Positions 49,222 to 64,000 of a stretch of 64,000 nt of DNA are shown here, in pieces. The first letter of the stretch is position 1, and each line of letters starts with the position of its first letter. The position numbers were made by a program, and so were the translations under genes. Origin of the DNA: Synechococcus sp. RS9909 (GTDB taxonomy: Bacteria > Cyanobacteriota > Cyanobacteriia > PCC-6307 > Cyanobiaceae); assembly GCF_014279595.1 (NCBI RefSeq), contig NZ_CP047943.1, positions 2,168,422-2,232,421 of the forward strand, given 5' to 3'. The notes under the pieces were generated by a model that was not told the DNA's origin, did not search any database, and saw only the letters and a program-made list of their open reading frames with translations.

Positions 49222-50640
49222 ATGGGATGGCTGAACCGGAACCTGATGGGAGGCCTCGGCGCGGTGGGCTTGGCGCTGCTCACGGCCAGCTGCAGTCAGC
49301 CGGGGCAGCTGCTGGGCCAGACACCGCCGGAACCACCGCTGCCGCCGGGCATCAACGTGGCCTTTAACCATCGCGATGGCGCCCGCTACCGCAGCCCGCT
49401 CACGGGCCAATGGCGCAACGGCGACAACCTGGAGCAGCTGGTGATCAAGGCGGTGGAGACGGCCCGCTCGGAGATCCTGGTGGCGGTGCAGGAGCTGTCG
49501 CTGCCGAGGATCGCCCAGGCCCTGGTGGCGGCCCAGGCGCGGGGCGTGCGGGTGCAGGTGGTGCTGGAAAACACCTACAGCACGCCCTGGAGCGAACAGC
49601 ACCTGGCCGACCTGCCGCCCCATGGCCGTCACCGGCTGGAACAGCTGGAGGCCCTGGCCGATCGCAACGGTGATGGGGTGCTCAGCGCCGAAGAACGCCA
49701 CAACGGCGATGCGGTGGCGATCCTGACGCGGGCCGGGGTGCCCCTGATCGATGACACTGAAGACGGCAGCAAGGGCAGCGGCCTGATGCACCACAAAGTT
49801 GTGGTGATCGACCGGGCGGTGGTGCTCACCGGCAGCGCCAACTTCACCAGTTCCGGCCTGCATGGCGATGCCGGTGCTGCGAGCACACGCGGCAATGTGA
49901 ACCACCTGCTGCAAATTGAGAGCCCGCAACTGGCAGCGGTGTTTGCAGCGGAATTCGCGCGGATGTGGGGCGATGGGCCCGGTGGTGGTCAGGACAGCCG
50001 CTTCGGGCGCGGCAAAGACAGCGGCGGTGTGGAGACGGTGCAAGTGGGCGCCACCCGGATTGAGGTGCTCTTCGCCCCCCACGCCAAAGCCGATCCCCAC
50101 CACGGCCTGCGGCTGATCGGGGCGCAACTGGCGGCAGCGCAACGGAGCATCGCCATGGCCCTGTTTGTGTTTTCAGCCCAGGAGTTGGCGGATGTGCTGC
50201 GGGAGCGGGTGGAGCAGGGGGTGGAGGTGCGCCTGCTGGCGGATCCGGGCTTCGCCAGCCGCTCCTTTTCGGAAGTGCTCGACCTGCTCGGCGTGGCCCT
50301 GCCCGATCGCTTCTGCAAGCTAGAGGCCGGCAACCAACCGTTCGAAACGCCACTGCAGGGAGTCGGCACCCCTCGCCTGGCCCGCGGCGACAAGTTGCAC
50401 CACAAGTTCGCCGTGATCGACAACACAACCGTGATCACGGGCAGCTTCAACTGGTCACCCTCGGCAGCGCACCAGAACGACGAGACCCTGCTGCTGATCC
50501 ACTCACCCATGCTGGCCGCGCATTTCAGCCGAGAGATCGATCGCATGTGGCGGGGCGCCGAACTGGGGATCACGGCGCGGATGCAGCGCAAGCTGGACCG
50601 CCAGCGAGCCCGTTGCGGCAGCGGCGAACAGCGGCAGTGA
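49222..50640 (+). CDS. Phospholipase D-like lipoprotein with EF-hand loop
   Basis: 472 residues. A lipoprotein signal with Cys in LLTASCSQPG is followed by two PLD domains: HKD motif 1 reads MHHKVVVIDRAVVLTGSANF and motif 2 LHHKFAVIDNTTVITGSFNW. Between the first domain's strands, DRNGDGVLSAEE is a canonical 12-residue EF-hand calcium loop. Probable periplasmic or outer-membrane phosphodiesterase, possibly calcium-controlled. The C-terminus RARCGSGEQRQ is copied again 1.4 kb downstream (52063-52105). Confidence 0.9.
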   Translation: MGWLNRNLMGGLGAVGLALLTASCSQPGQLLGQTPPEPPLPPGINVAFNHRDGARYRSPLTGQWRNGDNLEQLVIKAVETARSEILVAVQELSLPRIAQALVAAQARGVRVQVVLENTYSTPWSEQHLADLPPHGRHRLEQLEALADRNGDGVLSAEERHNGDAVAILTRAGVPLIDDTEDGSKGSGLMHHKVVVIDRAVVLTGSANFTSSGLHGDAGAASTRGNVNHLLQIESPQLAAVFAAEFARMWGDGPGGGQDSRFGRGKDSGGVETVQVGATRIEVLFAPHAKADPHHGLRLIGAQLAAAQRSIAMALFVFSAQELADVLRERVEQGVEVRLLADPGFASRSFSEVLDLLGVALPDRFCKLEAGNQPFETPLQGVGTPRLARGDKLHHKFAVIDNTTVITGSFNWSPSAAHQNDETLLLIHSPMLAAHFSREIDRMWRGAELGITARMQRKLDRQRARCGSGEQRQ

Positions 50641-50641
50641 G
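50599..50641 (+). repeat. Left copy of a 43-bp imperfect direct repeat
   Basis: The last 42 bases of the PLD gene plus one match 52063-52105 at 36 of 43 positions, aligned by eye. Two toxin-antitoxin modules lie between the copies. Confidence 0.7.
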
Positions 50642-50672
50642 AGGCCGCCCGCCATTGGTCATGATCGGGCCT

Positions 50673-51032
50673 TCAGGCTGGGCTGATTCCCAGGGCGTGC
50701 GCCAGGTCGGCAAGGCGACGGTCCTGCGTCCAGAGGGTGCAGTGGGAGAGTTTTGCTGAGGCGAGGAGCTGGGCATCCACAAAGCCAATACCACGTCCCA
50801 TCAACTCGTGTTGCTCGATCAGGATCAGCACTTCCGCCGGGCTGGCCACGCGGGCAGCCGGCAGGCCCTGGAGGAGTGTGAGTACGCGGCTGCGATCGCG
50901 AAGGTTCCCGCAGGCGAGTTCACCGATCACCCAGGGATGGATCAACACAGCATTCTCCTGGAGGGCTGCCATGAGCTGCGGCATGCCGGAGCGGAGGTGA
51001 TCCACCCAGATGGAGGTGTCCACAAGGATCAA
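50673..51032 (-). CDS. vapC: VapC-type PIN-domain toxin (module 1)
   Basis: 119 residues. The PIN fold starts MILVDTSIWVDHL (first acidic residue), with a second acidic residue in WVIGELACG and the pair in GIGFVDAQLL. PIN toxins cut tRNA or rRNA in the cytoplasm. It overlaps the upstream antitoxin stop by 4 bases. Confidence 0.9.
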   Translation of the reverse strand: MILVDTSIWVDHLRSGMPQLMAALQENAVLIHPWVIGELACGNLRDRSRVLTLLQGLPAARVASPAEVLILIEQHELMGRGIGFVDAQLLASAKLSHCTLWTQDRRLADLAHALGISPA

Positions 51033-51223
51033 GCGGCGCTCCTGCGACGAGGCACCGGCTGCAGATCCGGCTGGCTACCCGCGAGTGCCGCCAGGCGGCG
51101 GGCGCTCTCGCGCTCCACCAGGGCCTGCAGGGCTTCCTTGAGCAGATGCGTGCGCTCGAGATGACCACAGAGCTCCTGGGCCTGCGCGAGCAACTGATCA
51201 TCGAGGTTGACGGTCGTGCGCAC
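51029..51223 (-). CDS. vapB: VapB-type antitoxin (module 1)
   Basis: 64 residues from GTG at 51223. VRTTVNLDDQLLAQAQELCG looks like a ribbon-helix-helix DNA-binding start, and the C-terminus (ALVERESARRL) would bind the toxin. It sits just before the PIN toxin and should repress its own operon. An upstream GTG or TTG is possible. Confidence 0.82.
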   Translation of the reverse strand: MRTTVNLDDQLLAQAQELCGHLERTHLLKEALQALVERESARRLAALAGSQPDLQPVPRRRSAA

Positions 51224-51240
51224 AGGCCTCACTCCAGCCA

Positions 51241-51261
51241 AAGCATCATTTTAAGCATCAT
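51241..51261. promoter_or_regulatory. Tandem repeat, candidate VapB operator
   Basis: AAGCATCAT occurs at 51241-51249 and again at 51253-51261, just upstream of the vapB start and inside the region shared with the divergent module 2. Repeats of this kind often bind RHH antitoxins; binding is inference. Confidence 0.35.
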
Positions 51262-51322
51262 CTGATGAGGCGCGACTTCTGCTGAAACCTCACGGGAGGC
51301 TCCGTGACCGATCCACCTACGC

Positions 51323-51343
51323 TGTACAAATATGATGTACAAA
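51323..51343. promoter_or_regulatory. Repeat TGTACAAA x2, candidate Phd/YefM operator
   Basis: TGTACAAA is at 51323-51330 and 51336-51343, ending 2 bases before the antitoxin ATG. TGTACA is self-complementary, so the pair also forms an inverted repeat, as expected for a dimeric antitoxin repressor. Confidence 0.45.
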
Positions 51344-51345
51344 CC

Positions 51346-51600
51346 ATGATGCAAGTTTCCGTCTCTCACCTGCGCCAGAACCTGCCCGCCTACCTGAAGC
51401 GGGTGCAGGCAGGAGAGGCCATTCAGATCACCTCCCGCGGCAGGGTCATTGCCCGCTTGGAGGCCGAACACGATCCCGCCCAGGCAGCCCGCCAGTGGCT
51501 GGAGGAACTGCAGGGCCGCGTGACGTTGGTGGATGTGGTGTCTCCGCTGGTACCAGACCTGGCTGATGCGGCTTGGAGTGGAGATGCCGACCATCTGTGA
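51346..51600 (+). CDS. Phd/YefM-type antitoxin (module 2)
   Basis: 84 residues. MMQVSVSHLRQNLPAYLKRV and ITSRGRVIARLE form the Phd/YefM DNA-binding domain. ATG at 51346 (or 51349) is chosen because it follows the TGTACAAA repeats. It overlaps the downstream toxin start by 17 bases. Confidence 0.85.
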   Translation: MMQVSVSHLRQNLPAYLKRVQAGEAIQITSRGRVIARLEAEHDPAQAARQWLEELQGRVTLVDVVSPLVPDLADAAWSGDADHL

Positions 51601-51985
51601 CACCCACATCCTGTTGTTCTGGGCCCATGAGCCCCATCGGCTCTCGCCCCCAGCCCGGCAGGCTCTTGAACTGGGTCGCAACAAAAAACAGCTGGCGATC
51701 GCCGACATTTCGCTCTGGGAGCTGGCCCTACTGCATGAACGTGGGCGTCTGGTGCTGCCGGCGGACGTCTCGGCCGACTTCTACGTGAGGCAACTCCTCT
51801 CAGCCCTGCGGCTGGAGGTGCTGCCCATCACTCCTGAGATTGCCCTGCTGTCACGCAGTGACCTGTTTCAGCACGGAGATCCAGCCGATCGCCTGATCGG
51901 CGCAACGGCCTTGCAGCTGGGTTCGCGACTGATCACCGCTGACGCCAAGCTGCGCGAACTGCCGGCATTGGACACGCTTTGGTGA
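51584..51985 (+). CDS. PIN-domain toxin (module 2)
   Basis: 133 residues. MPTICDTHILLFWAHEP gives the first acidic residue, and ADISLWELALLH the second; HGDPADRLIGATALQLG and LITADAKLREL complete the PIN core. ATG at 51584 is preceded by GGAG. Probable RNase toxin paired with the upstream antitoxin. Confidence 0.88.
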   Translation: MPTICDTHILLFWAHEPHRLSPPARQALELGRNKKQLAIADISLWELALLHERGRLVLPADVSADFYVRQLLSALRLEVLPITPEIALLSRSDLFQHGDPADRLIGATALQLGSRLITADAKLRELPALDTLW

Positions 51986-52104
51986 GCACGACGTTCAAGA
52001 CTGAACCACGCAACAGCGACCTGGAGCTGAAACAGGAGCGTGACTGGTGGCGGCCACCGGAACGCCAGCAAGCGCGAAGCGGCAGTGGCGAACAGCGGGG
52101 GTGA
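51982..52104 (+). pseudogene. 40-codon remnant carrying the PLD-lipoprotein C-terminal tail
   Basis: A GTG-started frame overlapping the module-2 toxin stop ends RQQARSGSGEQRG, which parallels the PLD ending RQRARCGSGEQRQ. The rest (FKTEPRNSDLELKQERDWW) shows no domain. It is most likely a duplicated or displaced 3' end, not a working gene. Confidence 0.35.
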
Positions 52105-52105
52105 G
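52063..52105 (+). repeat. Right copy of the 43-bp imperfect direct repeat
   Basis: Matches 50599-50641 at 36 of 43 positions. It bounds the two toxin-antitoxin modules between 50.6 and 52.1 kb and may mark an insertion or duplication event. Confidence 0.7.
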
Positions 52106-52108
52106 GGG

Positions 52109-52123
52109 CCTAGCCTGACTAGG
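52109..52123. promoter_or_regulatory. Inverted repeat CCTAG-N5-CTAGG before module 3
   Basis: A 5-bp inverted repeat with 5-base spacer ends 16 bases before the module-3 antitoxin ATG. A plausible autoregulatory operator; not proven. Confidence 0.35.
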
Positions 52124-52139
52124 TAGACCAGACCAGGAT

Positions 52140-52370
52140 ATGGATCAACGCTGCGTCAACGTTCAGGAGGCCAAAACCCAGCTCTCGGCGCTGTTGGCCA
52201 GGGTCGAGGCCGGCGAGCGCATCGTGCTGGCCCGCCACGGCAAGCCCATCGCCCAGCTGGTGCCCCTTGATCCCAGCCCGCGCCGGCAACTCGGCTTTTT
52301 GGAAGGGCACGTGGATGATGCCTTCTTCGACCCCCTGACCGAGGACGAACTGGAGCGCTGGGGCGTATGA
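52140..52370 (+). CDS. Phd-type antitoxin (module 3)
   Basis: 76 residues. VNVQEAKTQLSALLARVEAG and VLARHGKPIAQLVPL are typical of the Phd/YefM family; the acidic end (FFDPLTEDELERWG) would contact the toxin. The stop overlaps the toxin ATG by 4 bases. Confidence 0.9.
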   Translation: MDQRCVNVQEAKTQLSALLARVEAGERIVLARHGKPIAQLVPLDPSPRRQLGFLEGHVDDAFFDPLTEDELERWGV

Positions 52371-52756
52371 AGCTGCTCCTCGACACCCATGTGCTGCTGT
52401 GGGCCCTGCTGGAACCGCAGAAGCTCTCCTTGACGTTGCGTAACGCTCTGGAAGAGAGCGACAACACCCTCGTTGTGAGCGCAGCATCCGCCTGGGAAAT
52501 TGCGACCAAATGGAGGCTGGGAAAACTGCATCACGCCCGCTCCGTCGTCGAGAACTACGCTATGGCCCTGCATCGCCTGGCAGCGGTCGATCTGCCGATC
52601 AGCACGGCCGTGGCACGGCAAGCCGGCCTTTGGGATGTGCCGCACCGCGATCCCTTCGATCGCCTGCTGGCCGCCCAGGCCATCGCAAACGAACTTGTGC
52701 TGGCCAGCTCCGATCAGGCGTTCGCCCTGTTCGAGGGATTGGTGACCCTGCGATGA
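52367..52756 (+). CDS. PIN-domain toxin (module 3)
   Basis: 129 residues. MKLLLDTHVLLWALLEP and VSAASAWEIATKWRLGKL provide the first two acidic residues, and HRDPFDRLLAAQAI and LVLASSDQAF the rest of the PIN active site. Translationally coupled to the antitoxin. Confidence 0.92.
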   Translation: MKLLLDTHVLLWALLEPQKLSLTLRNALEESDNTLVVSAASAWEIATKWRLGKLHHARSVVENYAMALHRLAAVDLPISTAVARQAGLWDVPHRDPFDRLLAAQAIANELVLASSDQAFALFEGLVTLR

Positions 52757-52785
52757 GCTGCTCTGCAGAAGGCTGCGGGAACGCA

Positions 52786-53505
52786 TCACTCCGCCAATAA
52801 CTCCCGCAAGCGACGGTAGGCGGTAGCACCGATGGCCAGGGGCTGCTCAAAACCGTGAAAGTGGAGCAGATGCAGGGAGCGCGACACCCGCTCAAAGGAT
52901 TGCAAGCGGCGGCTTTGAATGATGGTGGAGCGATCCAGGCGTTGGAAGCTGTCGGCTGGCAGCAGGGCTTCCCATTCGCGGATGGGTCGCCGCAACACGA
53001 TCGGATCGCGATCCTGGAGCTGCAGATGGGTCTGCACCCGCATGCCCACCACCCAGAGCACCTGATCGAACGCCACAAATTCTTTGCCGTGCGCGAGGGA
53101 AGCTTCCAGCCAGAATCCACCTTCTGAAGAGGTGTTGTGCGGCAGCGCTGGCGACTTCTGCAAACGCTCCAGGCAACGCGCCAACCGCTCTGGGCGGATC
53201 GGCTTGAGCAGATAATCACGCACGCCGGCATCAAAAGCTGAAACGGCAAAATCGCTGTAAGCGGTGGTGATCACCACCGCGCAACTGGCCGGCAGCAGAG
53301 GAAGCAGCGCGGAGCCATGGTCCGCACCCAGGCGCAGATCGAGAAACACCAGATCAGGCGTATGAGCGCGAAGGGCCTGAATCGCCTGATTCAGCGAACG
53401 GGCTCTGGCCTGCACACGCACTGAGGGCGAAGCGCCAAGCATCGCCTCAAGGTGCTGCAGGGCACTGGGCTCATCGTCAATCAAGAGTGCGTGGAGGGGG
53501 TGCAC
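52786..53505 (-). CDS. LytTR-family response regulator
   Basis: 239 residues. The receiver domain (1-120) has acidic pocket LLIDDEPSA, phospho-acceptor Asp in LVFLDLRLG and Lys in YLLKPI. The LytTR DNA-binding domain (about 140-239) includes VLWVVGMRVQTHLQLQDRD and RLDRSTIIQSRRLQSFERVS. The start is GTG. It overlaps the upstream histidine kinase gene by 29 bases, so the two form one operon. LytTR regulators often control surface, virulence or natural-product genes. Confidence 0.92.
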   Translation of the reverse strand: MHPLHALLIDDEPSALQHLEAMLGASPSVRVQARARSLNQAIQALRAHTPDLVFLDLRLGADHGSALLPLLPASCAVVITTAYSDFAVSAFDAGVRDYLLKPIRPERLARCLERLQKSPALPHNTSSEGGFWLEASLAHGKEFVAFDQVLWVVGMRVQTHLQLQDRDPIVLRRPIREWEALLPADSFQRLDRSTIIQSRRLQSFERVSRSLHLLHFHGFEQPLAIGATAYRRLRELLAE

Positions 53506-54556
53506 CGGCTTGAATGGGAAGGGAAAGGGTCACCATGACAGAGCCACTCTCGTTGGTCACGGTGAGCTTGGCGGCATCGCCGTAGTGCAGTTGCAGCTGC
53601 CGGCGGATGAACTCCAATCCATAGCCACCGCGGTCGGAGTCTTGCCAAGAACCACTGTTCTTCACCTGCAACAGCATCTGACCGCCCTGCCGTCGACACA
53701 CCACAGACACCTGCAAGGCTTGATCATCGGCAGGGCTGCCGTATTTGAAGGCATTTTCCACCAGGGGCTGGAGCACATTGCGCGGCAGCCGAAGCGGTAA
53801 CAGCTCAGCATCCACTTCCTGCCGGTAGTCCAAACCATCACTAAAACGCAGATCCTGCACGGCGAGATAACTTTCCATGGCGTGCAACTGGCGATGCAAG
53901 GGCTCCAGCGCATCACCCGGCTCGGTGGCATAACGCAAGTAATCCGCCAGCCCCGCTGCCGCATCGAGCACCCGATCTGGATCATGCCGGCAGGCAACGA
54001 TGGCATTCAGCCCATTCATCAGAAAATGGGGCTGAAACGCCTCATGGAGTGAGCGAAACTGCAGCTGCAAGGCAGTGCGCTCCTGCTGATACCGAAGGAG
54101 CTCACTGCGCCGTAAATCACGGATCGCCATCAGGAAGGCATACAGGCTCGCCCACATCAGCAGACGCATGGACATCGACAAAGAATAGAACGAAAATCCA
54201 TACCAGAAAGATGGTCGTGCGACCGAATCAACACCCCACAAAACCCACTGAAGAGCCAAAGAAAAGACGATCGCGAAGACAGCACAGAAGCCCAGCACCA
54301 CAAAGAAGCGCCGCCACCCCCGCAAGCCAGGCCGCAATCCAACCAAGCGGTGCAACCAACTACAGAACAGAAAACCACTGATCAACCGGGCTGCAACAAA
54401 CCAGTCCGGGGGAACAATCTCAGGGCGGAGTGTTTTCAAAAAGGCAGAGAATGCCACCAAGGTGGCAAACCAGTAGGCCAGATTGAACCCAGCGAACCAG
54501 TATCGCCGCAAACGATGAGACCAGCCCAACGAAGCAGTCGCTGAGGGGTCAGACAT
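53477..54556 (-). CDS. LytS/YehU-type membrane histidine kinase
   Basis: 359 residues. About four to five membrane segments occupy about 20-170. The His_kinase (PF06580-type) box FQPHFLMNGLNAIVACR contains the phospho-His, and the HATPase domain has LVENAFKYG (N-box) and GGYGLEFIRRQL (G-box). ATG at 54556 (MSDPSATASLG). It senses an unknown signal and phosphorylates the adjacent LytTR regulator. Divergent from the large exported-protein gene. Confidence 0.92.
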   Translation of the reverse strand: MSDPSATASLGWSHRLRRYWFAGFNLAYWFATLVAFSAFLKTLRPEIVPPDWFVAARLISGFLFCSWLHRLVGLRPGLRGWRRFFVVLGFCAVFAIVFSLALQWVLWGVDSVARPSFWYGFSFYSLSMSMRLLMWASLYAFLMAIRDLRRSELLRYQQERTALQLQFRSLHEAFQPHFLMNGLNAIVACRHDPDRVLDAAAGLADYLRYATEPGDALEPLHRQLHAMESYLAVQDLRFSDGLDYRQEVDAELLPLRLPRNVLQPLVENAFKYGSPADDQALQVSVVCRRQGGQMLLQVKNSGSWQDSDRGGYGLEFIRRQLQLHYGDAAKLTVTNESGSVMVTLSLPIQAGAPPPRTLD

Positions 54557-54573
54557 GGAAGGAGCAACCCAGT

Positions 54574-54774
54574 TTGGCCAATGACAATACGGCCGGATCA
54601 ACGCTTCTGCGGGGGCGCAGGCTGATCAAAAACAGAAGCAACAGAACCAATCCGGAACAGCTGATGCAAGACTGGGAAAAATCACCCCCTGCAGAGCGGG
54701 TAAAAATTGTAAATTTAATTCTACAAAGCAACTCGGGTCGCTCATTTCTCTTCGCAGGAGAACCGCAGGCATGA
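54574..54774 (+). CDS. Small hypothetical protein coupled to the large exported-protein gene
   Basis: 66 residues from TTG at 54574 (an internal ATG is at 54664). Basic N-terminus (LLRGRRLIKNRSNR) then QDWEKSPPAERVKIVNLILQ. The stop overlaps the ATG of the large gene by ATGA, which argues for a real coupled frame, but no family is recognised and the start is uncertain. It fills most of the interval to the kinase gene. Confidence 0.4.
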   Translation: MANDNTAGSTLLRGRRLIKNRSNRTNPEQLMQDWEKSPPAERVKIVNLILQSNSGRSFLFAGEPQA

Positions 54775-57700
54775 CAACCTCCTGGCAGCCACTTGGATCA
54801 ACAACCTTTGATGGAGCAGCCAACAGCGAAGAATTTGGCTCCTCAGTTAGCGTTTCTGCGAATGGTAGCCGCATTGCCATTGGCGCACCTAAAAGAGACA
54901 CGAATGGCAGCAGCGCAGGGGGCTTTGCGCAGGGAAGCGTCGAAATTTACGAGTGGGATGAAGCGAATAGTCAATGGGCAAACATTGGCACTCTCGAAGA
55001 AACAACAAGCCAAGACGAACTAGGAACATCTGTAAGCCTTTCAGCCGACGGCAATTGGCTTGTTGTTGGAGCACCATACAACGACAGCGAAGGGACAAGC
55101 TCAGGACGTATTCGCACTTACCAGTGGAACAATGAAGCGTGGACGCATCGAGGCGATATCCCGGGTGAGACGGGAGCAGAGCGATCTGGGTCATCCGTCA
55201 GCATCGCAGCCAATGGAGATAACATTTATATTGCGATTGGTTCTCCATTCAGCAAGGGGGATTTAAGTAATCAGAAAACGAGCTCAGGGCAAGTCCGCAT
55301 CTTCAAATGGGATGGCAACTCGGCATGGGACCAACTCGGAAATGACATCAATGGCGAATCCAACAGCGATTTCTCAGGAACCTCTGTCAGCCTTTCAGCA
55401 GATGGATCACGAGTCGCCATTGGTGCCCCATCTAACGATGAGAATGGCTCAAATTCTGGGCACGTTCGTATCTACGAATGGGATGGCAACTCGGCATGGG
55501 ACAAACTCGGAAATGACATCAATGGCGAATCCAGCATCGATTACTCAGGAACCTCTGTCAGCCTTTCAGCAGATGGATCACGAGTCGCCATTGGTGCCCC
55601 AAAGAACGATGGGAATGGCTCAAACTCTGGGCACGTTCGTATCTACGAATGGGATGGCAACTCGGCATGGGACCAACTCGGAAATGACATCAATGGCGAA
55701 TCCAGCAGCGATTACTCAGGAACCTCTGTCAGCCTTTCAGCAGATGGATCACGAGTCGCCATTGGAGCCCCAAAGAACGATGGAAACGGCTCAGATTCTG
55801 GGCACGTTCGCATCTACGAATGGAATGGAGGCGAAGAGGCATGGAATTTAGTTGCTGACATTGACGGAAATAATGGCGATCAATTAGGTACTGCAGTCAG
55901 CCTTTCAGAGGACGGCAAAGCCATCGGCGCAGGTGGTATCCAAGCCAATGGTCCTGGGATAGCAAGACTTTATGTATCTCACAACAATGCTCCCGCTGGC
56001 ACCGATAACAACATCACAATTAATGAGGACGGCTCACACACTTTTGCTGCCTCTGATTTCGGTTTTACCGATACAGATGGCAACAACCTGAGCGCTGTCA
56101 TCATCGCCAGCCTCCCGGAAGCTGGCTCCCTCAAACTCAATGGCACCGCGGTCACCGCTAACCAATCCATCACTGCCGCTGACATCACAAGCCTGGTCTT
56201 CTCACCAGCAGCTGATGCCAACGGCACCGGTTACGCCTCCTTCACCTTCCAGGTGCAAGACAACGGCGGCACCGCCAATGGAGGCGTTGATACTGATCCA
56301 TCCCCCAACACCATCACCTTCAACGTCACCGGCGCCAACGATGCTCCGGTGGTCACAGCCATCACCTCCAACAAAACCGAGGACGATACCTCCTACTCCA
56401 TCGATCTCCTCGCTACCGCATCAGACGCTGATTCCTCCGATTCTCTCGCCGTTGCCAACCCATCAGCCGCCGCTGTTGATGGCAACAACAACAGCATCTC
56501 CATTCCTTCTGGCGCTCTCTCACTCTCCGGTCAGAACCTGACCGTTGATCCCAACGCCTTCGATAACCTCGACAACGGTGAATCCGTCGTCATCACCTAC
56601 TCCTACGACGTTTCTGACGGCAACACTTCCACCGCCAATTCAGCCACCATCACCATCACCGGCGTTGATGATCCAGCCGTTATCACTGGCAGTTCGTCTG
56701 ATTCCACGCAGCCCCAGGAAATTCAAGATCCCCAAGCCACGGTCGCCCAAACATCATTCCAAGCCACCCTCGTGTCCACCAATACGGTCACGAATCAACT
56801 TGCAATCCAAGCGGCACTCGCAACCGGCATCAGCTTAAGCAATGTGGCGATTGACTTCGAGCTCACCCTGGAAGAAGGCTTGGATGATGTGAACGCCACG
56901 ATCCCTCTCGCTGAACTCCTTGGCGATCTCACACTCACCAACACCGATGGAAAACGCAATCCCAACAAACACCTCATTTATTACTCCATCGATTCAACGG
57001 GTAACCTCTCACCCCTGTCCTACGACCCTCTCACAGGTGCCGGCGCCCGTTTCTACGACACCAACAATGACGGCATTGCCGATTTACTCTCGTTGAAACT
57101 GATTGATGGCGGCTTCGGCGATAAGGATGGCATCAAAAATGGTGTCATCGTAGATCCATCCACACCAGCTGTTGTAGAGATCAACCCAGCTTTCACACAG
57201 CAAGCCAATGGCTTCCTTCGTGTCAGCGATTCCACCGATGCAGCCCCAGTTGCCTTGGCGCTCAAAGCATCGCTGATCGCCCGCAGCTCCCCTGCCACAA
57301 CAATCGGCTATGTGATCCTCAACGCCGGAGAAGAAGCCTCAATCGTTAACAATCTGAGCGGCTTCAAAGAACGCGCCACCACCTTGTTCACAACGCTCGA
57401 ATCTGACGACGCGATCGCCGATCATGACATGCGCTTTGAACGGGACCTCTTACTCCGCAACGGACAGAGTGTGCGCTTCTTTGCGATCACCGACGGCAGC
57501 CTCGCTGAACTCAGCAGTCTCAGTGATTCGCGCTTTTCCTTCCTCGACAACACCGTTCATGCCGATACCGGCACGGCATCGATCGGCGGTGGCAGCGGAA
57601 GAGTGTCCTTCGAGCTTTCCCTTCAGAGCGATCAGAACCTCAGCGCTCTGATCGCCCAGGAGCAAACTGTGGCTCCCCTGCTCGATTTCACCGCATTCAG

Positions 57701-58160
57701 CGAAACAGACACAATCACCGGAGCCATCATTCAAGCCCGCGAGGCAGAGCATGACGCCATCACCGGCTTCTACCGCGTGCTCAACACCAGCGGCAGCGTG
57801 AGAGCGGCTGATGGCTCCCTACTAACGCCGGGAGATGCCGGCTACGCCGCCGCGGCCCTGCGCGACGCCAATCAGGTCGCGACATTCAGCGACCTTTCCG
57901 TTGCCGATGGTCAATCGACATCGACAGACTTCAGCCTGCAAGACAGCGGCACGTTCGCGCCCTTTGCCCAGGTGAACGGCCACACCTTCTTTGCCTTCGC
58001 TGAAGCCAATGCCGATGGCCTCTCTCACTTCCGCTCCCTCGGCACCAACCTCTTTGGCCTGGAAGACCAACTCGGTGGTGGTGATCTTGATTTCGATGAT
58101 CACATCATCGGCTTCAATATCTCCGGGTTGACTCGCAGCGATCAAGCCGCCGTGGCCTGA
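54771..58160 (+). CDS. Large exported repeat protein: FG-GAP repeats, cadherin-like domains, DUF4114
   Basis: 1129 residues, no N-terminal signal peptide. FG-GAP/integrin-alpha-like beta-propeller repeats cover about 1-400 (consensus GTSVSLSADGSRVAIGAP). A cadherin/Ig-like domain with TINEDGSHTF and VTGANDAPVV spans about 405-525, and a VCBS-like domain about 525-635. An undefined region follows, and a C-terminal DUF4114 domain (HTFFAFAEANADGLSHFRSL, GGGDLDFDDHIIGF) from about 1062. The many Asp/Asn-Gly motifs suggest calcium binding. Such proteins usually leave by type I secretion. The DNA is more A/T-rich than its neighbours and carries 171-bp repeats, pointing to horizontal origin. Confidence 0.9.
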   Translation: MTTSWQPLGSTTFDGAANSEEFGSSVSVSANGSRIAIGAPKRDTNGSSAGGFAQGSVEIYEWDEANSQWANIGTLEETTSQDELGTSVSLSADGNWLVVGAPYNDSEGTSSGRIRTYQWNNEAWTHRGDIPGETGAERSGSSVSIAANGDNIYIAIGSPFSKGDLSNQKTSSGQVRIFKWDGNSAWDQLGNDINGESNSDFSGTSVSLSADGSRVAIGAPSNDENGSNSGHVRIYEWDGNSAWDKLGNDINGESSIDYSGTSVSLSADGSRVAIGAPKNDGNGSNSGHVRIYEWDGNSAWDQLGNDINGESSSDYSGTSVSLSADGSRVAIGAPKNDGNGSDSGHVRIYEWNGGEEAWNLVADIDGNNGDQLGTAVSLSEDGKAIGAGGIQANGPGIARLYVSHNNAPAGTDNNITINEDGSHTFAASDFGFTDTDGNNLSAVIIASLPEAGSLKLNGTAVTANQSITAADITSLVFSPAADANGTGYASFTFQVQDNGGTANGGVDTDPSPNTITFNVTGANDAPVVTAITSNKTEDDTSYSIDLLATASDADSSDSLAVANPSAAAVDGNNNSISIPSGALSLSGQNLTVDPNAFDNLDNGESVVITYSYDVSDGNTSTANSATITITGVDDPAVITGSSSDSTQPQEIQDPQATVAQTSFQATLVSTNTVTNQLAIQAALATGISLSNVAIDFELTLEEGLDDVNATIPLAELLGDLTLTNTDGKRNPNKHLIYYSIDSTGNLSPLSYDPLTGAGARFYDTNNDGIADLLSLKLIDGGFGDKDGIKNGVIVDPSTPAVVEINPAFTQQANGFLRVSDSTDAAPVALALKASLIARSSPATTIGYVILNAGEEASIVNNLSGFKERATTLFTTLESDDAIADHDMRFERDLLLRNGQSVRFFAITDGSLAELSSLSDSRFSFLDNTVHADTGTASIGGGSGRVSFELSLQSDQNLSALIAQEQTVAPLLDFTAFSETDTITGAIIQAREAEHDAITGFYRVLNTSGSVRAADGSLLTPGDAGYAAAALRDANQVATFSDLSVADGQSTSTDFSLQDSGTFAPFAQVNGHTFFAFAEANADGLSHFRSLGTNLFGLEDQLGGGDLDFDDHIIGFNISGLTRSDQAAVA
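55308..55835 (+). repeat. Three 171-bp near-identical tandem repeats inside the large gene
   Basis: Units start at 55377, 55548 and 55719 (exact 171-base spacing, 57 codons each). A partial unit precedes at 55308-55376, and the third unit loses identity after about 55835. Differences are a few substitutions. Each codes one FG-GAP repeat, so copy number can change in frame by recombination. Confidence 0.93.
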
Positions 58161-58210
58161 GCGGTATCCGCGCGGCTTCGGGATACTGCATCAACGCCCC
58201 TCCCGTTGCC

Positions 58211-59191
58211 TTGACCGTTCTCCAGCGCGCCAGTCAGCACGCCCAGCGTGGCGAATGGGCCCAGGCGGAGGCGCTCTGCCGTGAGGTGCTCGCCAGCGGT
58301 GCCGACACCGCTGCGGCCCTGGCCCTGCTCGGCGCCATTCAACACGCCAGCGGGCGCCACCAGGACGCGATCGCCAGCCTCCAACAAGCGCTGCAGCTGA
58401 ACCCCGGCAACGCACTCGCCCTGGGCAACCTTGGCGCCGCCCAGCAGGAGCTGGGCCAGACCGAAGCGGCGATCCACTCCCTGCAGCAGGCCCTGAAGCT
58501 CCGGCCCGATTTCGCGATCGCCCTCACCAACCTCGGCCTCTGCCTGCAGAGCCGCGGCGATCATGAGGCGGCGATGGCCTGCTTCGCGCGCAGCCTCCGG
58601 CTCCGGCCCGGCAATCTCCGGGTGCTGCAGGGGCTGGGTTGGTCTCAGCTGCAGGCCGGCCATCCCGACGCCGCCATCGACACGCTGCAGCAGGTGCTCG
58701 CCCAGGCGCCACACGCTGCCGAAATCCGGCTGATCCTCGCCAGCGCCCAGCGGGAAGCCCGGCAGATCCAGGCCGCCGATCAGAACTTCCGCCGCTGCGC
58801 CACAGAGCCCCATGCCTCGGCCGCCGTGGTGGCGGCAAGCCTGGAGCACTTCACCGTGACGCGCCAGGCCAACGCCCTGGAGCAGCTGCTCGACAGCAGA
58901 GGTCAGGGCGTCAGCGATCCAGTCGCGCAGGTGTATGCGGCAGCCCTGGCCCTGCAGCGCCAGCAGTTCTCCAACGCCCGAGCCATCAGCGACCAGCTCA
59001 ACAGCGACGCGATCACCGCCCTGCCGCCCACCGCCCGGATCCGCCACTGGAGCACGCGCGCCTGGCTGGACGACCACAGCGGCAACATCGACGCGGCCAT
59101 GGAGGCCTTCCTGGCGGCCCAGCAGGATCCGGCCTACGACCCTCTCGATCCGGACGCCCAGCCCAGACGCATCGCCGCCTACCGCCGGTGA
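58211..59191 (+). CDS. TPR protein: 5' part of an IS-split TPR-sulfotransferase
   Basis: 326 residues of TPR repeats (consensus ALALGNLGAAQQELGQTEAA, LTNLGLCLQSRGDHEAAM) over about 1-180, then helical segments ending DAQPRRIAAYRR. A stop lies directly at the left inverted repeat of an IS3-type element. The sulfotransferase domain continues on the far side at 60873. In cyanobacteria TPR and sulfotransferase domains are often one protein, so this is probably a truncated gene; whether the TPR part still works is unknown. The start is TTG at 58211. Confidence 0.85.
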   Translation: MTVLQRASQHAQRGEWAQAEALCREVLASGADTAAALALLGAIQHASGRHQDAIASLQQALQLNPGNALALGNLGAAQQELGQTEAAIHSLQQALKLRPDFAIALTNLGLCLQSRGDHEAAMACFARSLRLRPGNLRVLQGLGWSQLQAGHPDAAIDTLQQVLAQAPHAAEIRLILASAQREARQIQAADQNFRRCATEPHASAAVVAASLEHFTVTRQANALEQLLDSRGQGVSDPVAQVYAAALALQRQQFSNARAISDQLNSDAITALPPTARIRHWSTRAWLDDHSGNIDAAMEAFLAAQQDPAYDPLDPDAQPRRIAAYRR

Positions 59192-59214
59192 CTGCCAGCA
59201 AAGATGACGCCCCT
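59192..59214 (+). repeat. Left terminal inverted repeat of the IS3-type element
   Basis: 23 bases starting CTGCCAGCAAAG; matches the complement of 60850-60872 except at positions 8, 13 and 21. Confidence 0.82.
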
Positions 59215-59222
59215 GCTGCTGT

Positions 59223-60308
59223 TCAAGCAGCCATCCTCAACGTAGCTGGACTGGGGTCAAGTTCTGTTGGTGGTGGATTGATCCAGACCACCTCTGGTTG
59301 ACGCCAGCAGCGTGTGGATCGTGACCACCGGCGTGGGTGTCGCTTGCGCGCTTGCTCGTACACGACAGCGCGATGTCGACAGATCTCGATGGCCTGACCG
59401 CTATGGCGTTGATGGGGCGTCACGAACTTGATGCCGCTGTGGCGGTGCCGATGGTTGTACCAGTCGACAAACGACGCGACCCACTGGCAGGCCTCGTCCT
59501 TGCTGGCAAATGGCCGTCTCGGGTAATCAGGCCGGTACTTCGCTGTGCGGAACAGCGATTCGGAGTAGGGGTTGTCATTGCTGACGCGCGGCCGTGAGAA
59601 CGACCTGAGCACACCCAGTTCTTCCAGCCGGCTTTCCAGCGTCGACGCACGCATGGCATTGCCGTTGTCAGCGTGGAGGATCAGCGGTTGGCGGCGCCTC
59701 TTGCTGATCTTCTCTCTCAAGCAGGCTCTGCTCACCAGATCCGCTGCAATGGCTGGATCCTCGCGCTCGGCGACATCCCAGGCCACAACCTTGCGGCTCC
59801 AGACGTCAATCACCAGGTAGAGGTACAGCCAGATCCCGCGCACGGTGGTGGGCAGGTAGGTGATGTCCCAGCTCCAAACCTCATTTGGACCAGCGGCCCT
59901 CAGCCGTGGCACGGGTCTTGGTTCTTGTGGTGGCCGTGCACGACCCCGCCGGTGAACCTGACCGTGAGCGTGCAGCACCCGGTAAAAGCTGCGTTCCGAA
60001 CCGATATAAAGCCCGCGATCGGCCAGGACCGGCACGATCTGGCCTGGCGGCAGCGCTGCAAATTCAGGTTCGTTGCAGGTGAGCAGGATCCGTTGGCGTT
60101 CCTCCTCACTGAGGCGGTGAGCGACGTGGCGGTGGCTCCCCTTGCGCCGGTCGACGCCATCACCGTCACCAGCAAACTGACGGCGCCAGCGCTGCAGCGT
60201 GGTGAGCCCCACGCCGAGCAGCAAGGCCAGCTCACGGGCTCGGGCACCATTGGCCATGCCCTCATCAAGAATATCCAGGGCCTTCCGGCGATCGTCGGGT
60301 GACGTCAA
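59223..60308 (-). CDS. IS3-family transposase OrfB (rve integrase core)
   Basis: 361 residues. An N-terminal HTH (LALLLGVGLTTLQRWRRQF) precedes the retroviral-type integrase core. The DDE triad is seen as VWSWDITYLP (Asp), LHADNGNAM (Asp) and NPYSESLFR (Glu). The start TTG at 60308 overlaps the orfA stop by 4 bases, so it may be made by coupling or by frameshift. Intact in appearance. Confidence 0.92.
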   Translation of the reverse strand: MTSPDDRRKALDILDEGMANGARARELALLLGVGLTTLQRWRRQFAGDGDGVDRRKGSHRHVAHRLSEEERQRILLTCNEPEFAALPPGQIVPVLADRGLYIGSERSFYRVLHAHGQVHRRGRARPPQEPRPVPRLRAAGPNEVWSWDITYLPTTVRGIWLYLYLVIDVWSRKVVAWDVAEREDPAIAADLVSRACLREKISKRRRQPLILHADNGNAMRASTLESRLEELGVLRSFSRPRVSNDNPYSESLFRTAKYRPDYPRRPFASKDEACQWVASFVDWYNHRHRHSGIKFVTPHQRHSGQAIEICRHRAVVYEQARKRHPRRWSRSTRCWRQPEVVWINPPPTELDPSPATLRMAA

Positions 60309-60811
60309 TCGTCCCCGTCCTCTCCCCAGAAGGCCTGAATCTTTTTTGAGGCGATCAGCAGTGCAGCCGCCTCCGCCAGGGCTTTCTCCTTGCGGCGCAG
60401 CTCCTGCTTGAGCCGCTTGATTTCCTTTTGATCCTGGGCGCGGAGCCGTTCAAGCTCCTTCTGCTCTTTCAAGGTGAGCACTGGTTTTTCGTTGGCATCC
60501 TGCGATGCCTGACGCCAGCGCTCTACCTGCTCCGGGAACAAGCCCCGCTCGCGGCAGTAGGCACTGAGCTCGGTGGCGTTGAGCCCAGCGGTCTCGAGCA
60601 CCACCGTGAACTTATCGGTGGCGCCCCAGCCCTCAGGATCCTTCTCGGATGCCGGCACCACCTCTCCCTGCAACCGCCAGGCCTTCCTCCAGTTGTAGAG
60701 GGTGACCACGTGAATGCCCAGCTCTGCTGAGATCTGGGCCACGCTCTGCCGCATCGGCGGACTCATCCGCCTTCTCACATCAGCCTTGACGGCCTCGCTG
60801 TAGCGACGCAT
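60305..60811 (-). CDS. IS3-family transposase OrfA (HTH protein)
   Basis: 168 residues. MRRYSEAVKADVRRRM and AQISAELGIHVVTLYNWRKAW form the transposase helix-turn-helix; a long charged coiled-coil (LERLRAQDQKEIKRLKQELR) follows. It binds the element ends with OrfB. Confidence 0.9.
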   Translation of the reverse strand: MRRYSEAVKADVRRRMSPPMRQSVAQISAELGIHVVTLYNWRKAWRLQGEVVPASEKDPEGWGATDKFTVVLETAGLNATELSAYCRERGLFPEQVERWRQASQDANEKPVLTLKEQKELERLRAQDQKEIKRLKQELRRKEKALAEAAALLIASKKIQAFWGEDGDD

Positions 60812-60833
60812 TGCTCTGCTCCATCAAGCCCCC

Positions 60834-61727
60834 TTGGTGATCGAAATGGAGAGGCGTCAACTTTCCTGGCAGAGGGGGCGCCAGCTCGCCGAGCAACTCG
60901 CCCAGCGGCGCCTTTCCCGAGGCCAAGCCCCATCCGCCATCGATCCGGGCCGGGAGTCCCAGCGCCGGCCACCGGTATTTCTGATGGGCTTCCCCCGCTC
61001 CGGCACCACCCTGCTCGACACCATCCTGCGCTCCCATCCCGCCATCGATGTGGCGGAAGAAAAGCCGGGGATCGCCGCTCTGGAGATCCACCTGCAGGAG
61101 ACGCGGGGGTGGTCGATCGAGCAATTCGCCCGCCTGGACGAGCACGACCTGCAGGACCTGCAGCAGCTCTACTGGCAGGGCATGGCCCCCTTCTGGGACA
61201 GCTCACAACCGGTGCTGATCGACAAACTGCCGCTGCACATCTGCGCCGTGCCCCTGATCCAGGCCGTGTTCCCCGACGCCACCTTTCTGCTGGCGATCCG
61301 CAACCCGCGCGACACGGTGCTCTCCTGCGTGCAGCAGACCTTCGCCGCCAACGACGCCATGCTGCACCTGCGCTCCCTGCCCGAGGCAGCCCGCTTCTAC
61401 GACCGGGTGATGACGGCCTGGCTGCACGTGCAACGCCAACTCGATCCGGCGGTGCAGGTGATCCGCTACGAGGATCTGATTGCCGACCTACCGGCGACGA
61501 TCCAACCCGTTCTCGACCGCCTCAACCTGCCCTGGGACGAGCGGCTGATCGCCTTTCAACGCACCGCCAGAGACCGGGACCTGATCAACACCCCATCCGC
61601 CGCCCAGGTGGTGCAACCGCTTTACAGCAGTTCCATCAACAAATGGCGCCGTTACCGCCACTACTTGGAACCCTGTGACCGCTTCCTCGCCGCCTGGCTC
61701 GATCACTGGGGTTATGGGTTTGAATGA
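60834..61727 (+). CDS. Sulfotransferase: 3' part of an IS-split TPR-sulfotransferase
   Basis: 297 codons open from TTG 60834 (ATG 60846), of which the first 13 come from the IS end; gene-derived sequence starts at 60873. The PAPS 5'-phosphosulfate loop reads FLMGFPRSGTTLLDTIL, and the 3'-phosphate region FPDATFLLAIRNPRDTVLSC. The Sulfotransfer_3-type domain runs to the end. It may sulfate a polysaccharide or a protein (tyrosine). If translated, it would be a lone catalytic domain without TPRs. Overlaps the next gene by ATGA. Confidence 0.87.
   Translation: MVIEMERRQLSWQRGRQLAEQLAQRRLSRGQAPSAIDPGRESQRRPPVFLMGFPRSGTTLLDTILRSHPAIDVAEEKPGIAALEIHLQETRGWSIEQFARLDEHDLQDLQQLYWQGMAPFWDSSQPVLIDKLPLHICAVPLIQAVFPDATFLLAIRNPRDTVLSCVQQTFAANDAMLHLRSLPEAARFYDRVMTAWLHVQRQLDPAVQVIRYEDLIADLPATIQPVLDRLNLPWDERLIAFQRTARDRDLINTPSAAQVVQPLYSSSINKWRRYRHYLEPCDRFLAAWLDHWGYGFE
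60850..60872 (-). repeat. Right terminal inverted repeat of the IS3-type element
   Basis: 23 bases; read on the minus strand it starts CTGCCAGGAAAG. The downstream sulfotransferase frame reads through this repeat. Confidence 0.82.
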
Positions 61728-62155
61728 GCCGGAGCGAAGGACACCCGTTGCAACTGCGCGCCCCATCCCTGCTGATCGGCCTGTTGCTGGTCGCCCCCCA
61801 GGCGCTGGCGGGGATGGAGCTGGTGCAAGTGGAGTATGTGCCTTTTCCCAGCAAAGATGAACTGCGCACCATCCAGCTCAAGGCCTTCGACTGCTCCAGA
61901 GAGAACAGCGCTGAGCCCTGCGAACGCACCCGCGCTCTCGCCGATCCACTCATGGATCACCCCCGCCTTCCCGCTGCCTGCAAAGACGCGGTGTGGGAAC
62001 TGCTCCAGGTCGCCAAACCGGCAGCGAGCAACAGCTTTCAACGCCGCGACGCGATCGATAAGCCAGCCCGCCGGCTCACCGTGGTCTGTGCCGACCCAGT
62101 GAAGCCGAAACCATCAGCACCGAAACCCGGCGCTCCTAATCCCAGTCAAACGTGA
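61724..62155 (+). CDS. Exported small hypothetical protein
   Basis: 143 residues. A signal peptide (PSLLIGLLLVAPQALAG) is followed by a small domain with four Cys (FDCSRENSAEPCERT, AACKDAVWELL, VVCADPV) that could form disulfides, then a Pro/Lys tail. ATGA overlap with the sulfotransferase stop suggests co-expression. Family not recognised. Confidence 0.72.
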   Translation: MSRSEGHPLQLRAPSLLIGLLLVAPQALAGMELVQVEYVPFPSKDELRTIQLKAFDCSRENSAEPCERTRALADPLMDHPRLPAACKDAVWELLQVAKPAASNSFQRRDAIDKPARRLTVVCADPVKPKPSAPKPGAPNPSQT

Positions 62156-62375
62156 AGCGCTGACCAGGCATCAGCCGGGTCACTTCCGCCTGGATTTCCG
62201 CCATCAGCTGCGTGCTGATCAAAGGGTGGTTCTTGATCTCGCGCACCAGCTCCTGCACATCCTCGGGCGTGAGGCCATGGCTCGACACCATCGCATCGAG
62301 GCGCTGCTTGACGCTCTGCAGCACCAGCAGCTGCTCGTCGCTCAAGGGAGCCGCGTTGGGATGGTCGATCTTCAT
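62136..62375 (-). CDS. Small helical hypothetical protein (79 aa)
   Basis: 79 residues, helical and hydrophilic (LSDEQLLVLQSVKQRLDAMV, PEDVQELVREIKNHPLIS). ATG at 62375; its end overlaps the convergent gene by 20 bases. No motif recognised. Confidence 0.6.
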   Translation of the reverse strand: MKIDHPNAAPLSDEQLLVLQSVKQRLDAMVSSHGLTPEDVQELVREIKNHPLISTQLMAEIQAEVTRLMPGQRFTFDWD

Positions 62376-62460
62376 GGCGTGGGGAGCGGACCTGCCACCG
62401 GCAAGGTAGCTACGACAACTGGTTGCGCCCAACACGACCCCAGCGCCGGATCATGTTTAG

Positions 62461-64000
<1,540 letters not shown>

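What the first reader, a model, noticed from the sequence alone, without database searches (positions are those of the whole stretch)
55308..55835. 171-bp in-frame tandem repeats in the exported protein
Three units at exactly 171-base spacing are almost identical in DNA, while the other FG-GAP repeats of the same protein have diverged. This indicates recent amplification, and copy number could vary between cells by recombination or slippage without breaking the frame.
Basis: seen in the sequence. Interest (0 to 1): 0.55.

Follow-up and report, generated by a model that had tools for sequence, protein, structure and literature searches.

The report
Recently copied blades in bacterial propeller
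A cyanobacterial protein that is probably secreted carries a seven-bladed, ring-shaped binding head in which three neighbouring blades are recent copies of each other; the number of blades is mostly held at seven in related proteins, while a few residues on one face of the ring keep changing, as in some known recognition proteins.

Summary
The repeat is real: 171 bp x 3.2 copies, window 55287-55828, copies 93.6-95.3% identical, in frame, in a 1,129-aa ORF (54771-58160). The units are blades 4, 5 and 6 of a predicted seven-bladed FG-GAP_2 (PF14312) beta-propeller. Recent amplification or homogenisation is supported: the copies are slightly less diverged at synonymous sites than three neighbouring genes are from the nearest relative held. 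Free copy-number variation is not supported: 43 of 49 complete propellers from genus and order have seven blades, and 58 of 69 from other phyla have 7 or 14. What varies is (i) a few residues in the D-A and B-C loops: with columns defined on other genomes, replacement exceeds silent change there in 20 of 22 Synechococcales arrays (20 of 31 in other phyla), while the other columns are conserved; and (ii) the whole N-terminal head: in the closest relative the same locus has an LRR/Ig head on the same DUF4114 tail. Best reading: an exchangeable, diversifying recognition head on a constant tail, beside a LytTR two-component system. Local blade amplification is a known kind; a near-fixed number with face-specific variability, paralleling fungal HNWD receptors, is a new variant. 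In the window alone selection is not significant, no ligand is known, and isolates could not be compared.

The parts
54771..58160 (+). ORF of 1129 aa: FG-GAP_2 propeller, Ig/cadherin-like linker, DUF4114 tail
   Evidence: ATG is the first start codon in the open frame
54783..55325 (+). propeller blades 1-3, diverged
55287..55828 (+). 171-bp tandem array, 3.2 copies
55326..55496 (+). blade 4 (copy 1)
55497..55667 (+). blade 5 (copy 2)
55668..55838 (+). blade 6 (copy 3; homology ends at 55828)
55839..55988 (+). blade 7, diverged; would close the ring
55989..56700 (+). Big_9 / Cadherin_4 linker domains
57732..58160 (+). conserved DUF4114-containing tail, 93% aa identical in the closest relative
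53477..54601 (-). histidine kinase (His_kinase PF06580), divergent neighbour
52786..53505 (-). LytTR response regulator

Best explanation
The three 171-bp units are blades 4, 5 and 6 of a single closed seven-bladed FG-GAP_2 beta-propeller that forms the N-terminal head of a probably secreted protein. They arose by recent local duplication or gene conversion inside the propeller, with the total held at seven because the ring has to close. The head probably binds a ligand through the face formed by the D-A and B-C loops; in the family, replacement changes between copies gather in those loops while the framework is kept, so copying followed by loop change renews the binding face. The head is an exchangeable module on a constant DUF4114 tail and sits beside a LytTR two-component system that may control it. 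Shown: the repeat, the count of seven units, loop-focused change across many relatives, head exchange at the locus, and the recurrent neighbour genes. Predicted: the seven-bladed fold. Inferred: secretion, ligand binding, selection in this particular gene, the closure constraint, and regulation by the neighbour.
For: FG-GAP_2 E 6.1e-30, 103.6 bits against a cut-off of 23. Seven blades by an iterated profile. AlphaFold2 of 54771-56000 without an alignment: pTM 0.81, mean pLDDT 73.6; Foldseek and VIA-align give propellers over the full length, best Z 32.3 (CylK) and many WD40 proteins near 30; an integrin alpha4beta7 chain is at Foldseek rank 22. Blade count seven in 43 of 49 complete arrays of genus and order, 7 or 14 in 58 of 69 from other phyla. 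Variable columns agree between the genus and other genera (Spearman 0.78), and 8 of the top 10 in other phyla are also in the top 10 of the other genera. pN in these columns exceeds pS in 8 of 9 arrays of genus plus window and in 12 of 13 arrays of other genera, with columns defined on the other set; elsewhere pN is below pS in 22 of 22. Of the window's 8 replaced columns, 5 lie in the top 10 defined on other genera (nominal P 0.003), 4 in the top 10 defined on the genus (P 0.027), and 6 in the D-A or B-C loop columns (P 0.019). Head exchange: flanks 94% identical to G018, tail 91% in DNA, no match within the gene upstream of 57014. Kinase and regulator paralogues also stand next to the two closest tail paralogues of the same genome.
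Against: In the window alone the excess of replacements at the variable columns is not significant (8 replacements, 2 silent, P 0.46). For other genera the same test is borderline (97 to 17, P 0.056). In other phyla pN exceeds pS in 20 of 31 arrays only, in viral contigs in 7 of 10. Six of 49 complete arrays do not show seven blades, nor do 11 of 69 in other phyla show 7 or 14, and in viral contigs only 20 of 33 show seven. No ligand, no secretion signal, and no expression data. The fold model was made without an alignment, and its coordinates were not at hand, so that the loops share a face rests on the known topology of propellers.
Confidence: 0.68

Rival explanations
1. Length switch: unit number changes by slippage or recombination and gives cells with different proteins.
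For: In-frame 171-bp units, exact runs of 57-58 bp between copies; five-bladed arrays in one genome where a similar gene of another has seven, and 3, 4, 6 and 7 blades within one giant ORF. A published case of 6 and 9 blades in otherwise identical paralogues is known for VCBS propellers (PMC9218822, section 12 read).
Against: 43 of 49 complete arrays have seven blades, 58 of 69 in other phyla have 7 or 14. Copies differ by 5-6%, so they are not fresh slippage products.
Confidence: 0.12
2. Ordinary structural repeat: the copies are a neutral by-product of recombination in a repetitive surface protein, and loop changes are only relaxed constraint.
For: Loops are expected to be less constrained; the window's own test is not significant and that of other genera is borderline; 11 of 31 arrays of other phyla do not show pN above pS; a general tendency of propellers to amplify blades is published (PMC9218822).
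Against: Relaxation alone should not push replacement above silent change: pN exceeds pS in 20 of 22 Synechococcales arrays with independently defined columns, and alternative codons are 103 to 14 against a neutral share of 0.74 in five groups of the genus (nominal P 3e-4).
Confidence: 0.25
3. A diversity-generating retroelement or similar targeted mutator writes the loop residues.
For: In six genus arrays (five proteins of relatives and the window's) several variable columns often use codons ending in C, and changes of two or three bases within a codon are frequent (77 and 25, against 77 of one base, over seven columns).
Against: No match to the reverse transcriptase domain PF00078 in any of 31 genus genomes, 24 of them at least 90% complete, while the control genomes rang in 3 of 14; third-position C may only reflect base composition. 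Other genera were not searched for it.
Confidence: 0.03
4. Assembly artefact.
For: Repeats of this length can be misassembled; no reads were available.
Against: One contig of 2,603,169 bases; within the array the copies differ at 12 codons; the total fits the ring; the same architecture recurs in many other assemblies.
Confidence: 0.02

Closest known systems
Locally repetitive beta-propellers (Pereira and Lupas 2022, PMC9218822; abstract, section 12 and the first part of section 14 read)
   Same: A few near-identical consecutive blades inside an otherwise diverged propeller; FG-GAP/integrin members make up 2% of their highly repetitive set.
   Different: They report a continuum of blade numbers biased to the family median; here seven is the count in most complete arrays. 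'Hypervariable' does not occur in their main text, and I saw no report of face-specific change.
HNWD / HET-D, HET-E receptors of Podospora anserina (PMC1805685 and PMC2873952; passages read)
   Same: Near-identical propeller blades, concerted evolution, replacement changes in pairs around a conserved residue, one pair in the d-a loop and one in the b-c turn, on the top face.
   Different: WD40 blades with HET and NACHT domains and a variable number of repeats; here FG-GAP_2 blades, probably extracellular, no such domains, number mostly seven.
Integrin-type FG-GAP propellers of bacteria (Chouhan et al. 2011, PMC3192720; passages read)
   Same: Seven blades in one chain, FG-GAP-like units.
   Different: No DxDxDG calcium motif in the blades here (sequence, read by eye), and three near-identical blades.
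Targets of diversity-generating retroelements (recalled)
   Same: Focused replacement changes in surface loops.
   Different: No reverse transcriptase match in 31 genus genomes.

Membership tests
Pfam FG-GAP_2 (PF14312) | profile match above the gathering score | tested here: met
   103.6 bits against 23, six stretches
seven-bladed beta-propeller | seven units closing into a ring | tested here: met
   seven units by profile; model pTM 0.81; full-length structural matches, among them G-protein beta subunits, Z about 30, which are seven-bladed (PMC8023676 passage). Prediction only; closure not measured on coordinates.
locally repetitive propeller | consecutive highly similar blades flanked by less similar blades | tested here: met
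   blades 4-6 at 89-95% DNA identity, pairs with the others 43-61%
integrin-type propeller | DxDxDG calcium motif in the A-B loop | tested here: not met
   none of the seven units listed holds the motif (read by eye; motif from PMC8023676)
HNWD receptor | HET and NACHT domains | tested here: not met
   neither among the families of the Pfam scan of the whole protein
HNWD receptor | hypervariable residues in d-a and b-c loops of near-identical blades | tested here: inconclusive
   found in the family of arrays; for the window alone the columns fit but selection is not significant
DGR target | reverse transcriptase in the genome | tested here: not met
   own genome and 30 others of the genus: 0 of 31 with PF00078
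contingency locus | unit number differs between isolates or cells | not testable with these tools
   one genome per species held; no full-length match to this propeller outside the own genome among 399
DUF4114 proteins | profile match above the gathering score | tested here: met
   30.4 bits against 27 for window 57000-58160 alone; 23.9, below the cut-off, when the whole protein is scanned

The most novel reading that the evidence does not exclude
FG-GAP_2 propellers of marine picocyanobacteria and many other bacteria are a widespread class of probably extracellular recognition rings with a near-fixed blade count, whose binding face is renewed by copying whole blades and then changing the D-A and B-C loop residues under diversifying selection: a bacterial counterpart, by convergence, of the fungal HNWD non-self receptors, perhaps directed at phages, grazers or partner cells.
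Probability: 0.35. Interest if true: 0.72.

Novelty: new variant of a known kind. Interest (0 to 1): 0.48.

Why it matters
If the reading holds, it separates two things often lumped together in repeat proteins: the number of units, which the closed fold holds near seven, and the sequence of the units, which is repeatedly copied and then changed at a handful of face residues. That gives a testable list of residues that should determine what such proteins bind, in picocyanobacteria and in many other bacteria, and a bacterial parallel to fungal recognition receptors. It also warns against reading in-frame tandem repeats as length switches by default.

Tried and rejected
Length switch: rejected as the main reading because of the blade counts. 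DGR: rejected for the genus; not tested in other genera. Donor of the head: none found; the longest match to blades 1-3 in another genus genome is 41% identical over residues 2-179 (shorter matches reach 53%), and in 399 genomes of the order the matches at E up to 1e-50 outside the own genome cover mainly the three copied blades. Tail function: an AlphaFold2 model of 56703-58157 without an alignment failed (mean pLDDT 33, pTM 0.22), so no fold search was made with it. The NCBIfam 'choice-of-anchor U' match to the whole protein is just below its cut-off (31 against 32 bits). Sequence search of solved structures gave one match, to the linker region. No Rfam match in 50000-64000 at gathering scores. 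A first count of blades by regular expression missed many and was replaced by a profile. A first identity matrix was wrong for blades whose ends the aligner trimmed and was replaced. The 'tail' pS/pN value was out of frame and is not used; one search replaces it with identities. The rank correlations with the other-phyla set failed because two columns were empty; only the top-10 comparison is used. First scans of genome contigs and viral contigs with the single protein gave no relative; with alignment A1 they did.

Rows dropped before counts; of 61 arrays of two or more blades, 2 of a different repeat of about 42 aa in G028 and 10 cut by the end of a frame at a contig or locus end were left out, leaving 49; single isolated blades were not counted. 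One of the six exceptions (G178c, six blades) seems by eye to have a seventh, degenerate blade, but is counted as six. The two five-bladed genes of G007 are near-duplicates and both count; one is left out. From (215 relatives, best 80 kept, 79 loci) 8 Synechococcus and Prochlorococcus loci were left out as their genera were already sampled (71 of 79 used), identical arrays were removed for the near-identical-pair tests. The order sample rests on 28 regions from 22 genomes: 21 of the 26 matching genomes outside the genus (37 of 299 genomes matched in all, 11 of them in the genus) and one more contig of G028. The genus arrays come from 17 regions picked from the match list, and the window.

Full report
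OBSERVATION. The window lies in a genome held as a single contig of 2,603,169 bases. One genus member, by its contig length of 378,165 bases, is Synechococcus sp. UW105. The array at 55287-55828 has period 171, 3.2 copies and score 944; the next of the window's 4 rows scores 63.

WHAT IT IS. The ORF holds FG-GAP_2 repeats, Ig/cadherin-like domains and a DUF4114 tail. A profile built from the protein's own units finds seven consecutive units in it. The copied units are blades 4, 5 and 6. They share 89-95% of bases with each other and 49-61% with blades 1, 2, 3 and 7. AlphaFold2 without an alignment gives pTM 0.81 for residues 1-410, and the model matches solved propellers over its full length. 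The homology starts in the last strand of blade 3 and ends in the last strand of blade 6 (55287 and 55828), so the duplicated unit runs from one such strand to the next.

IS THE NUMBER FREE TO VARY? I counted blades in complete arrays. In the genus and a sample of the order, 43 of 49 have seven. The exceptions are two near-duplicate genes in one genome with five, three propellers of 6, 3 and 4 blades in one giant ORF of G094 (which also has three of seven), and one array of six with a degenerate seventh blade by eye. In 71 loci of other phyla, 53 of 69 complete arrays have seven and 5 have fourteen; the other 11 have 2 to 9. In viral contigs 20 of 33 have seven. Seven is strongly preferred but not absolute. 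The window's array sits inside a complete seven. Variation between isolates could not be tested: in 399 genomes of the order no match outside the own genome covers the whole propeller, and the closest relative carries another head.

HOW RECENT? Synonymous divergence among the three copies is pS 0.111. Three neighbouring genes compared with the closest genome (G018) give 0.131, 0.159 and 0.248. The copying, or the last homogenisation, is thus about as old as or slightly younger than that split. It is not a product of the present population. Blades 4-6 form their own clade among 147 blades of 21 genus proteins (support 0.85). Duplication and gene conversion cannot be told apart with these data.

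WHAT DOES VARY. Between near-identical blades of relatives, replacement changes gather in a few of 56 columns: 14, 16, 19, 35, 36, 42, 43 and some neighbours. The genus and other genera agree (Spearman 0.78), and 8 of the top 10 columns in other phyla are in the top 10 of the other genera. By the strand boundaries of the model and the known topology of propellers these columns lie in or beside the D-A and B-C loops, which are on one face; I had no coordinates to measure this. With columns defined on the other set, replacement exceeds silent change in 8 of 9 arrays (genus and window) and 12 of 13 (other genera), and in all 22 the remaining columns show the opposite. In other phyla it is 20 of 31, with the remaining columns opposite in 30 of 31; in viral contigs 7 of 10. 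Counting each alternative codon once per group of near-identical blades gives 103 replacements to 14 silent in five genus groups (P 3e-4), 97 to 17 in five groups of other genera (P 0.056) and 72 to 12 in five of other phyla (P 0.023). These P values are nominal, as blades of one array are not independent. For the window itself the columns fit (5 of 8 replaced columns in the top ten defined on other genera, P 0.003; 4 of 8 with the genus set, P 0.027), but the test for selection is not significant (8 to 2, P 0.46).

THE LOCUS. G018 has the same flanks at 94% identity. Within the gene, identity is 94-95% from about 57800 rightwards, 62-69% at 57014-57600, and there is no match further upstream. 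The tail (57732-58157) is 91% identical in DNA and 93% in protein. In place of the propeller G018 has an LRR_5 and Ig-like head, itself with a 285-bp tandem repeat, and a further ORF before it. The head in the window has 51% G+C; the tail has 58%, the kinase 57%, the regulator 62% and three ORFs further out 65-71%. So the head differs between the two genomes on a conserved tail, most simply by exchange. The two closest tail paralogues in the window's genome begin with DUF4347 before Ig/cadherin-like domains. Both have a paralogous kinase and LytTR regulator beside them, and the two segments are 90% identical to each other over 5.4 kb. G018's two closest other tail genes lack this pair within the fetched stretch. 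In a search of 10 genus genomes the kinase was found only in these two genomes. Control of the protein by the pair is therefore possible but inferred.

MECHANISM. Most likely the protein is secreted without an N-terminal signal (none by hydropathy), perhaps by a type I route, and its ring binds something outside the cell. Copying of a blade spreads a working framework; later changes in the face loops give new contacts; the fold keeps the number at seven. Secretion, binding and selection in this gene are inferred.

COMPARISON. Local blade amplification is published and highly repetitive FG-GAP propellers are known (PMC9218822). The closest working analogy is the HNWD receptor family of Podospora. 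There two pairs of codons, in the d-a loop and the b-c turn, are under positive selection, each pair around a conserved residue (PMC1805685, passages; PMC2873952, passages). Here columns 14 and 16 flank D15, which was invariant in the 30 blades. It is not a member of that family: HET and NACHT are absent. I found no paper that describes this pattern for FG-GAP_2 propellers in the listings of searches of an open-licence library, which misses most subscription journals. A 2020 study of diversifying bacterial conflict systems (PMC7159879, passages) has no occurrence of 'FG-GAP'.

VERDICT. Observation confirmed; interpretation partly supported. A known kind of event with a less familiar pattern: near-fixed number, changing face. 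The window's own copies are a modest example; the strength lies in the relatives.

Noticed in passing
window 58211-61727: An IS element with two reverse-strand ORFs (HTH_Tnp_1 and rve) lies between a TPR ORF and a sulfotransferase ORF; in G018 the two are one intact 606-aa ORF at the same place.
   Followed up: partly
window 50673-52756: Small ORFs of toxin-antitoxin type (one VapC-like below its cut-off, one Phd-family above it; two without an NCBIfam match) between the phospholipase D-like gene and the LytTR regulator; this stretch is missing from G018.
   Followed up: partly
L052 4463-9843 and L053 3586-9011: Two other cassettes of LytTR regulator, kinase and DUF4114-tail protein in the same genome, 90% identical to each other over 5.4 kb: a segmental duplication.
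   Followed up: partly
L039 and L040: Two near-duplicate giant ORFs in G007 with five-bladed FG-GAP_2 propellers, where a similar array in G004 has seven: a difference in unit number between genomes.
   Followed up: partly
L074: One giant ORF in G094 (its contig has the length of a Prochlorococcus AG-402-L23 contig) with six FG-GAP_2 arrays of 6, 7, 3, 7, 7 and 4 blades.
   Followed up: no
L168-L198: 31 loci in viral contigs encode related FG-GAP_2 blades; 10 arrays there hold near-identical copies. Whether these contigs are truly viral was not checked.
   Followed up: no
L045 (ORF G028b_m1_3190): A different repeat family of about 42 aa weakly matches the blade profile.
   Followed up: no
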